64,000 nt of DNA from Diploptera punctata (taxonomy: Eukaryota > Arthropoda > Insecta > Blattodea > Blaberidae), in assembly GCA_030220185.1 (NCBI GenBank), contig JASPKZ010009849.1, forward strand, positions 1 through 64,000, in the 5' to 3' direction. Positions within the stretch are counted from its first letter, which is position 1, and each line of letters opens with the position of its first letter. Positions 29,578-30,589 of the stretch are shown here, piece after piece. Below the pieces are notes generated by a model, which did no database searches, was not told the DNA's origin, and saw only the letters and a program-made list of their open reading frames with translations. The translations under genes and the position numbers were made by a program.

Positions 29578-29703
29578 ATAAATGTTAATTGACGTTTTAG
29601 GAGTTATTGCTATGAGGTATTAATTATTTCAAAGTTAAAAATGGAAATTCATAATGGCGGTTAAAAATGAATGACAAGATCATTTGAAAACTATAGTTAC
29701 CGT

Positions 29704-30009
29704 GTTAATATTATTCGTTTTTAAACACCTTAATGATGGACAAATTATATTTGAAAAGAAAAATATATTATATTTGAAGAGAAAAATTTTCGCCTAGACC
29801 GGGACTCGAACCCGGTCTAGGCGAAAATTTTTCTCTTCAAATATAATTTATCCTTCAATGAGAAGTGTTAAATTAATAATAAAATCGTCAGAAAAATATA
29901 TGCCTAGACTGGGATTTGAACCCCATCTCAGATGGAAGAGCATTGACATAGAAAGTCAAAGGTCCTGGGTTCAAACCCCAGTCTAGGCATATATTTTTCT
30001 TTTCAAATA
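29704..30009. mobile_element. tRNA-headed palindromic element with 12-bp TSD (outer)
   Basis: Flanked by TATAGTTACCGT (29692-29703 and 30010-30021). The left arm is a long tail (cttaatgatggacaaattat) plus a T-arm fragment (tgcctagactgggatttgaac). The right arm is most of a tRNA-like sequence (gatggaagagcattgac to ggttcaaaccccagtctaggca) plus a short tail ending in ttttcttttcaaata. It is inserted in a PLE 3' end related to 9600-9680. The smaller element 29769-29889 interrupts its left arm. Confidence 0.85.
29769..29889. mobile_element. tRNA-headed mini-palindrome with 12-bp TSD (inner)
   Basis: A 121-bp insert between AGAAAAATATAT copies (29757-29768 and 29890-29901). It is just two facing T-arm/acceptor fragments (cgcctagaccgggactcgaa / its complement), each with the common AGAGAAAAATTTT tail. 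The left tail is short (tatatttgaagag) and the right is long (through atttatccttcaatgagaag to aataataaaatcgtc). Confidence 0.88.
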
Positions 30010-30021
30010 TATAGTTACCGT

Positions 30022-30338
30022 ATTGTTTATTTTTTATTATTTCACTCACCTCATACTTCATAAATCATAGCAGACCCTGGGTTTCTTCACGTAATTTGTG
30101 ACATTGTCAATGCTGCATCACGTTCACAACTGACGTCCAACGGCCTTCTATCCTCTTATTTGAGGATAGAAGGCCGTTGGACGTCAGTTGTGAACGTGAC
30201 GCAGCATTGACAATGTCACAAATTACGTGAAGAAACCCAGGGTCTGCTATGATTTATGAAGTATGAGGTGAGTGAAATAATAAAAAATAAACAATATTAA
30301 AGAACCTCATAGTGTTATTTCCTATCTACATAACTTAA
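30022..30338. mobile_element. PLE-derived palindrome with 12-bp TSD
   Basis: Flanked by TATAGTTACCGT (30010-30021 and 30339-30350). The arms (tcatagcagaccctgggtttc and complement, gtgaacgtgacgcagcattg) match 20228-20897 but without the coding part. The left arm stops in the loop; the right arm runs through aacctcatagtgttatttcc. The left direct repeat is shared with the tRNA-headed element at 29704-30009. Confidence 0.9.
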
Positions 30339-30589
30339 TATAGTTACCGTGTTTAATAAAACATGATATATGAGGTAAGATGTAAAAATGACTCATTAAT
30401 TTATTAATTATTTATTTAAATAAAATTGTTGATAATATTTGCATTCTTCACCATAATGTGTCTGATCTACATAAATGAGTAAAACCTAGTAAATGCATAA
30501 TTGATAGGAAATAACGCTGAGGTATTTTATAAAAAAAATAGAATTGGTTGAACTTTTATTGGAAAAAATCACTATAAGGTTTAATTTAA

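What the first reader, a model, noticed from the sequence alone, without database searches (positions are those of the whole stretch)
29692..30350. One 12-bp target used by both a tRNA-headed element and a PLE palindrome
TATAGTTACCGT occurs three times, at 29692-29703, 30010-30021 and 30339-30350. Between the first two is a tRNA-headed palindrome; between the last two is a PLE-derived palindrome. The flanking PLE sequence is continuous when both are removed. Two different sequence classes therefore went into the same site with the same duplication length. I infer a shared integration enzyme, probably the PLE-encoded RT plus GIY-YIG nuclease.
Basis: partly seen in the sequence, partly recalled or inferred. 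Interest (0 to 1): 0.88.

Follow-up and report, generated by a model that had tools for sequence, protein, structure and literature searches.

The report
tRNA elements riding Penelope retrotransposon machinery
In this animal genome, short jumping sequences that begin with a tRNA appear to be inserted by the same cut-and-copy machinery as Penelope retrotransposons, because both kinds land at one exact site, leave the same 12-base footprint and have the same end structure.

Summary
TATAGTTACCGT lies at 29692, 30010 and 30339, and three empty copies of the site lie in the same window. The 12-mer is native to the 3' end of a Penelope-like element (PLE-1), 17 nt after its ORF. The locus is four nested insertions, each flanked by a 12-bp target-site duplication (TSD); the "tRNA-headed palindrome" is two nested tRNA elements.

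Genome-wide the site is used again and again. Of 101 right junctions with a foreign left neighbour I read 100; 55 are complete filled sites holding 47 distinct inserts: 31 PLE, 10 tRNA-headed, 4 other, 2 unlabelled. Away from this site both classes again have a TSD mode of 12, one short end and one ~40-nt tail (the published PLE signature). A target motif trained on PLE targets alone, RAA(C)|N12|(G)TTY, predicts tRNA-element targets (P=8e-8; local null 1e-5).

Best reading: PLE RT plus GIY-YIG endonuclease inserts tRNA-headed elements in trans. The enzyme is inferred. Against or open: preference over neighbouring positions is only suggestive in unselected copies, one genome-wide motif control was not clean, and the better one did not complete.

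The parts
29618..29629 (+). left TSD copy TATTAATTATTT of the host PLE-1 fragment
   Evidence: 12-nt direct repeat with 30402-30413; AT-rich and found by eye
29630..30401 (+). 5'-truncated PLE-1 3' end, split by the later inserts; native 3'-end sequence 29650-29691 and 30351-30401
   Evidence: gapless alignment of the joined flanks to three empty paralogues at 9598, 42874 and 42290-42406(-)
29692..29703 (+). target/TSD copy 1 TATAGTTACCGT
29704..30009 (-). insert A: tRNA_d element (tail on the left, short end at 30009) carrying a nested tRNA_e element
   Evidence: ARAGORN tRNA call at 29900-29989; arms I5/I7/I9; continuity when the nested insert is left out
29757..29768 (+). TSD AGAAAAATATAT of the nested tRNA_e element, copy 1
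29769..29889 (+). nested tRNA_e mini-palindrome turning in the tRNA T-arm, short end left, tail right
   Evidence: arms 29758-29803/29811-29856; offsets -6/38
29890..29901 (+). TSD AGAAAAATATAT, copy 2
30010..30021 (+). target/TSD copy 2 TATAGTTACCGT, shared by inserts A and B
30022..30338 (.). insert B: PLE-2 head-to-head palindrome, short end left, about 41-nt tail right
30339..30350 (+). target/TSD copy 3 TATAGTTACCGT
30402..30413 (+). right TSD copy TATTAATTATTT of the host PLE-1 fragment
8378..9622 (+). PLE-1 ORF piece: end of the RT domain, then C-terminal GIY-YIG
   Evidence: Pfam GIY-YIG E=9.3e-7, above cut-off; RVT_1 E=2.6e-6, 27.7 bits against a cut-off of 29.6
9640..9651 (+). empty target site in PLE-1, 17 nt after the ORF stop
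42259..42981 (.). PLE-1 palindrome with two further empty target sites (42353-42364 -, 42917-42928 +); own TSD TTACTTTTTTCC at 42247/42982
35187..40671 (.). giant tRNA_a palindrome, about 9.3 tandem units each way; flanking repeat AAACATGTTATTTAAAT, 17 nt, includes microhomology
55162..57350 (.). tRNA_b tandem/palindromic element inside PLE coding sequence, TSD ATCTATTTAAACC (13, ambiguous by microhomology)
62752..63376 (.). tRNA_b element with an inner SINE-like piece, TSD TCACTTTTACAAT
   Evidence: noticed by eye

Best explanation
PLE-encoded RT plus GIY-YIG endonuclease inserts both PLE RNAs and tRNA-headed RNAs. The enzyme cuts both strands 12 nt apart between two inverted half-sites, roughly RAAC|N12|GTTY, leaving 12-nt 3' ends. 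A cut 3' end primes reverse transcription of whatever RNA is bound. Synthesis starts at one of two positions near the RNA 3' end, which gives a 'short' end or a ~40-nt longer 'tail' end. The second side is made either by priming from the other 3' end on another RNA (unequal arms) or by the cDNA folding back and copying itself (equal arms), which yields the head-to-head palindromes; filling the 12-nt ends makes the TSD. tRNA-headed elements are non-autonomous passengers with their own 3' hairpin between the two start positions. PLE-1 carries a good target just after its ORF, so it collects insertions of all classes. Shown here: shared site, shared TSD length, shared end structure, cross-class motif, hairpin covariation. 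Inferred: enzyme identity, order of steps, RNA recognition.
For: Filled sites: 55 of 100 right junctions read, 36 PLE, 12 tRNA-headed, 4 other, 3 unlabelled; 49 of 55 upstream copies exact, and 50 of 55 repeats do not extend past 12 (the left edge is fixed by the search pattern, the right edge is not). 249 left junctions, reversed control 0. Palindrome scan: short-end/tail signature with TSD of at least 10 in 87 of 284 palindromes against 55 of 2706 mismatched flank pairs. TSD elsewhere: PLE 12 in 21 and 13 in 11 of 51; tRNA 12 in 5 and 13 in 3 of 10. PLE-trained motif on tRNA targets: 5 of 10 at p<0.05, Fisher P=8.3e-8, P=1.1e-5 against neighbouring offsets. Hairpin in the tRNA tail: 74 of 92 pairs formed over 23 variants, against a shuffle mean of 61.8 and maximum of 73 in 5000. 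ORF: C-terminal GIY-YIG after RT. A purified PLE cleaves and extends both strands of its own ORF-pLTR junction and starts RT at two internal sites that define the tail (PMC11167929, main text read).
Against: No protein or RNA was tested, and no intact PLE ORF was looked for. Five of 10 tRNA targets do not score at p<0.05. Of these 10, one (L040) has a doubtful label and one (62739) was added by eye; the nested 29757 event and L056 were left out. The genome-wide motif count AAAC...tRNA tail (366) is only 1.3 times the control CAAA (276). That control is not clean (by hand count 31 of its 100 listed strings read CAAAC and 33 CAAAT), and a GTTT control did not complete. In unselected PLE-1 copies the site has left junctions in 4 of 68 and right junctions in 3 of 71, while other offsets reach 5 and 9, so preference over neighbours is only suggestive. 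45 of 100 right junctions are not complete filled sites (6 are SNPs of the empty site). Tail sequences of tRNA elements and PLEs are not obviously homologous. The published PLE cleavage motif is ATT and published TSDs seen were 8-10 bp.
Confidence: 0.82

Rival explanations
1. Different enzymes, one fragile site: the PLE-1 3' end breaks often (it holds the perfect palindrome AACTATAGTT) and any cDNA is captured there.
For: The site is AT-rich and palindromic; inserts are diverse.
Against: Breakage does not give a TSD of 12 with both edges fixed, nor the same TSD mode, tail and motif at unrelated sites.
Confidence: 0.06
2. tRNA-headed elements are ordinary SINEs moved by a LINE with an APE-type or other endonuclease.
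For: They have a tRNA head and no coding capacity that I noticed; SINEs normally use LINEs (recalled).
Against: Variable short/tail ends, no poly(A) or simple-repeat 3' end in the tails printed, head-to-head arms and PLE-type targets.
Confidence: 0.07
3. The triple repeat is a segmental or tandem duplication, or recombination between PLE copies.
For: Tandem PLE-1 3' ends exist (e.g. L010).
Against: 47 distinct inserts of several classes between identical 12-mers; empty paralogues in the same window.
Confidence: 0.02
4. An unknown third element encodes the enzyme and both PLE and tRNA elements are passengers of it, e.g. the hammerhead-bearing X17 class.
For: X17 and X67 inserts use the same site and TSD.
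Against: PLE ORFs with RT and GIY-YIG are present and the end structure matches published PLE biochemistry; no other enzyme was seen or searched for.
Confidence: 0.03

Closest known systems
Penelope/Poseidon PLE of Anolis carolinensis, purified protein (PMC11167929; main text read)
   Same: Both strands cut and extended; own ORF-pLTR junction used as target; two internal RT start sites explain an optional 30-40 bp tail; C-terminal GIY-YIG.
   Different: There an AT-rich ATT cleavage motif, no tRNA-headed templates ('tRNA' does not occur in its text). Here a 12-nt stagger, AAAC/GTTT half-sites and foreign tRNA-headed templates.
Bdelloid rotifer Penelope families and the pLTR-framed NRPS gene (PMC3846280; passages and Discussion read)
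   Same: Head-to-head inverted pLTRs, palindromes at the inverted junction read as self-priming, optional 31-bp tail, mobilisation of a foreign sequence in trans.
   Different: TSDs of 8-10 bp in the passages seen; the passenger carries the PLE's own pLTRs, whereas tRNA-headed elements here carry their own ends.
Metazoan non-LTR retrozymes (PMC7229834, PMC7761336; passages read)
   Same: About 300-bp units in tandem arrays, low GC, proposed PLE mobilisation, co-occurrence with PLEs.
   Different: They are defined by a type I hammerhead ribozyme; no such core fell in a tRNA unit of the window and no hammerhead family is among the 68 Rfam matches at E up to 1. Here the head is a tRNA.
tRNA-derived SINEs (recalled)
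   Same: tRNA head, short, non-coding, high copy.
   Different: Ends, targets and arm structure are PLE-like, not LINE-like.

Membership tests
Penelope-like element (PLE-1, the host) | RT and C-terminal GIY-YIG in one ORF | tested here: met
   GIY-YIG 29.5 bits (cut-off 22.6) after RVT_1 27.7 bits (cut-off 29.6, so the RT match alone is just below it); window copy is 5'-truncated
Penelope-like element | inverted/tandem copies and optional tail on one side | tested here: met
   87 of 284 palindromes with the signature
Penelope-like element | hammerhead ribozyme motif | tested here: inconclusive
   26 regex cores in 332 kb without a chance control; hammerhead-like cores seen by eye in X17, L078 and PLE-6; no Rfam hammerhead at E up to 1 in the window
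PLE-mobilised passenger (tRNA-headed elements) | same target site and TSD as PLEs | tested here: met
   12 of 55 filled sites; TSD mode 12 elsewhere
PLE-mobilised passenger (tRNA-headed elements) | PLE-type ends: short end plus tail | tested here: met
PLE-mobilised passenger (tRNA-headed elements) | use by PLE protein | not testable with these tools
   needs biochemistry
SINE | tRNA-derived head | tested here: met
   ARAGORN and Rfam RF00005 up to 57.4 bits
SINE | 3' end shared with a partner LINE | not tested
   no LINE search was made
SINE | poly(A) or simple-repeat 3' end | tested here: not met
   tRNA-type tail ends printed are specific sequence, not poly(A)
non-LTR retrozyme | tandem units of about 300 bp | tested here: met
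   periods 295-304
non-LTR retrozyme | type I hammerhead ribozyme in the unit | tested here: not met
   none of 5 regex cores in the window lies in a tRNA unit; minimal variants could be missed

The most novel reading that the evidence does not exclude
tRNA-headed retroposons that are parasites of Penelope-like elements rather than of LINEs: a PLE enzyme, probably a dimer, cuts 12 nt apart at symmetric AAAC/GTTT half-sites, primes from both 3' ends, and copies any RNA that offers a small hairpin between two 3' start positions. Repeated passes over circular or tandem tRNA-headed RNA would build the 9 + 9 unit palindromic arrays.
Probability: 0.6. Interest if true: 0.88.

Novelty: new variant of a known kind. 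Interest (0 to 1): 0.8.

Why it matters
How PLEs integrate is largely unknown; one purified PLE has been studied. This genome holds a natural experiment: one target position filled at least 47 different ways. It gives the stagger (12 nt), candidate half-sites, the two start positions and the range of accepted RNAs, all directly testable. If tRNA-headed elements really use PLE machinery, short retroposons are not tied to LINEs, and PLE activity may have been overlooked as a source of tRNA-like repeats, tandem arrays and palindromes in animal genomes.

Tried and rejected
Segmental duplication: rejected, many distinct inserts. Strict mirror copying of the giant 35182-40678 palindrome: unit variants are not mirrored between arms, so a single snap-back copy is not shown; assembly or polishing effects cannot be excluded. 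Hammerhead in tRNA units: not found. A first class labelling put PLE-1 palindromes holding nested tRNA inserts (L015, L020, L052, L058) in the tRNA class; relabelled by tail type. A regex class count (27/14/6) miscalled several PLE and X17 inserts; the BLAST labels are used instead. CAAA as a motif control was ill chosen, since it overlaps the motif. Neighbouring-offset counts genome-wide were planned but not answered; a small version on fetched copies is. The first hairpin regex found nothing because it was wrong; mended. One search failed on an index error and was rerun. Organism not identified. A paper on PLEs with permuted domains (PMC8557442) is not held. Searches for print on tRNA elements moved by PLEs; none seen in the listings, and one search gave 0 papers.

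Full report
Setting. The window is animal DNA: it holds an exon of splicing factor SF3B1 (E=5.5e-74), a mitochondrial COI-like fragment (by eye) and many retroelements. Its genome is held as G000, 3.12 Gb in 10165 contigs.

The observation. TATAGTTACCGT lies at 29692, 30010 and 30339. It also lies at 9640+, 42917+ and 42353-, each time inside an uninterrupted copy of the same 3' end of a Penelope-like element, here PLE-1. At 9640 it begins 17 nt after the stop of an ORF with RT and C-terminal GIY-YIG matches. Joining the flanks of the filled site gives a gapless alignment with 5-6 substitutions to all three empty copies. So the 12-mer is a target, and the two extra copies are duplications.

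Anatomy. Four insertions are nested, each with a 12-bp TSD: PLE-1 itself (TATTAATTATTT, 29618/30402); a tRNA_d element at 29704-30009; a tRNA_e mini-palindrome at 29769-29889 inside it (AGAAAAATATAT), turning in the tRNA T-arm; and a PLE-2 head-to-head palindrome at 30022-30338. The first TSD was found by eye and is AT-rich.

Recurrence at the site. The pattern for the right flank with a foreign left base has 101 places (reversed control 0); the left-flank pattern has 249 (control 0). I fetched and read 100 of the 101. 55 of 100 have the PLE-1 left flank, an upstream 12-mer (at most 1 mismatch) and an insert: 36 PLE, 12 tRNA-headed, 4 X (X17 type 3, X67 1), 3 unlabelled. 6 are SNPs of the empty site. 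The other 39 of 100 are foreign neighbours without a complete left side in the fetched stretch (29 PLE, 7 tRNA, 2 X, 1 none). Clustering gives 47 distinct inserts: 31 PLE, 10 tRNA, 4 X, 2 unlabelled. 49 of 55 upstream copies are exact; 50 of 55 repeats do not extend beyond 12, 2 extend by 1, and 3 are longer, as in insertion of PLE-1 into itself. The left edge is fixed by the search; the right edge is not.

Is it a hotspot? In PLE-1 copies of the fetched DNA, with the selected junctions left out, left junctions at this site are 4 of 68 (other offsets: mean 0.39, maximum 5) and right junctions 3 of 71 (mean 0.94, maximum 9). That suggests but does not prove preference: right-side counts also include places where palindrome arms turn, and numbers are small. 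A genome-wide count of empty sites did not complete.

Away from the site. A scan of window plus loci found 284 palindromes; 87 carry a flanking direct repeat of at least 10 nt placed at about 0 nt from one arm and 25-55 nt from the other, against 55 of 2706 mismatched flank pairs. After relabelling by tail and removing duplicates, TSD lengths elsewhere are PLE 10:3, 11:3, 12:21, 13:11, 14:8, 15:3, 16:2 (n=51) and tRNA 12:5, 13:3, 15:1, 17:1 (n=10); also 6 'other' and 1 X67. Lengths above 12 include chance microhomology. The short-end/tail rule was part of the selection; the TSD length (at least 10) was not otherwise selected.

Target motif. From 28 unique 12-nt targets, A is frequent at -3 and -2, C at -1, A/T at the first TSD base, with the mirror image on the other side. 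A matrix from 21 PLE targets scores 28 of 45 PLE targets (leave-one-out where trained) and 5 of 10 tRNA targets at p<0.05; Fisher P=8.3e-8 for tRNA and 1.1e-5 against neighbouring offsets of the same joined flanks. The repeated site, GAAAAC|TATAGTTACCGT|GTTTG, scores in the top 0.5%. Against: AAAC 12-16 nt before a tRNA_b tail occurs 366 times and CAAA 276 times. CAAA overlaps the motif (by hand count 31 of 100 listed strings are CAAAC, 33 CAAAT), so this comparison decides nothing.

Ends and RNA structure. All six PLE families carry TATGAGGT- or TTGAGGT-like and ACCTCA-like strands around the short end (by eye). tRNA elements have, just after the short end, a hairpin with compensating changes (CATC/GATG, TTTC/GAAA, CTTC/GAAG): 74 of 92 pairs in 23 variants, shuffle mean 61.8, maximum 73 of 5000. 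A purified PLE starts RT at two sites that bound the tail, in a stem-loop (PMC11167929). The tRNA elements therefore look like PLE templates in structure, though I found no clear sequence homology between the tails.

Arms. Of 55 inserts at the site, 22 have symmetric inverted arms, 11 asymmetric, 22 none. Equal arms fit self-priming, as proposed for rotifer PLEs (PMC3846280, Discussion read); unequal arms fit priming from both cut 3' ends, as a purified PLE extends both strands. I think both occur.

Known and new. PLE self-targeting of the ORF-pLTR junction, tails, inverted arms and trans-mobilisation of a pLTR-framed gene are published. What I did not find in the searches named is a tRNA-headed, non-autonomous class using PLE targets, TSD and ends, nor a 12-nt symmetric target. 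Retrozymes are proposed PLE passengers (PMC7761336, passages), but they are defined by hammerheads, which the tRNA units lack by my tests. Hence: new variant of a known kind.

Noticed in passing
35182-40678: Giant palindrome of about 9.3 + 9.3 tandem tRNA units; variants are not mirrored between arms, inner left units share two substitutions. Rolling-circle copying or assembly effect, undecided.
   Followed up: partly
15932-17117: Tandem array of 3.9 tRNA units in one orientation, no TSD seen by eye.
   Followed up: no
L017, L081, L091, L078: X17/X78 inserts at the same site carry hammerhead-like cores (by eye); perhaps PLE or retrozyme relatives.
   Followed up: partly
27506-27829, 32308-32649, 41821-42163, 62798-63133: A separate tRNA-headed SINE-like family, copies 94-99% alike, once inside a tRNA_b element.
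   Followed up: no
25454-25921 and about 40960-41180: SF3B1 exon and a second SF3B1-like coding stretch read by eye; the retroelements between them would be intronic.
   Followed up: partly
43080-43850: COI-like mitochondrial fragment with many stops under the invertebrate mitochondrial code, a likely numt.
   Followed up: partly
14273-15349: 358-codon open frame resembling a Tc1/mariner transposase (by eye).
   Followed up: no
33501-34520, 53846-54258: Further nested PLE palindromes with repeats of 11-15 nt.
   Followed up: partly
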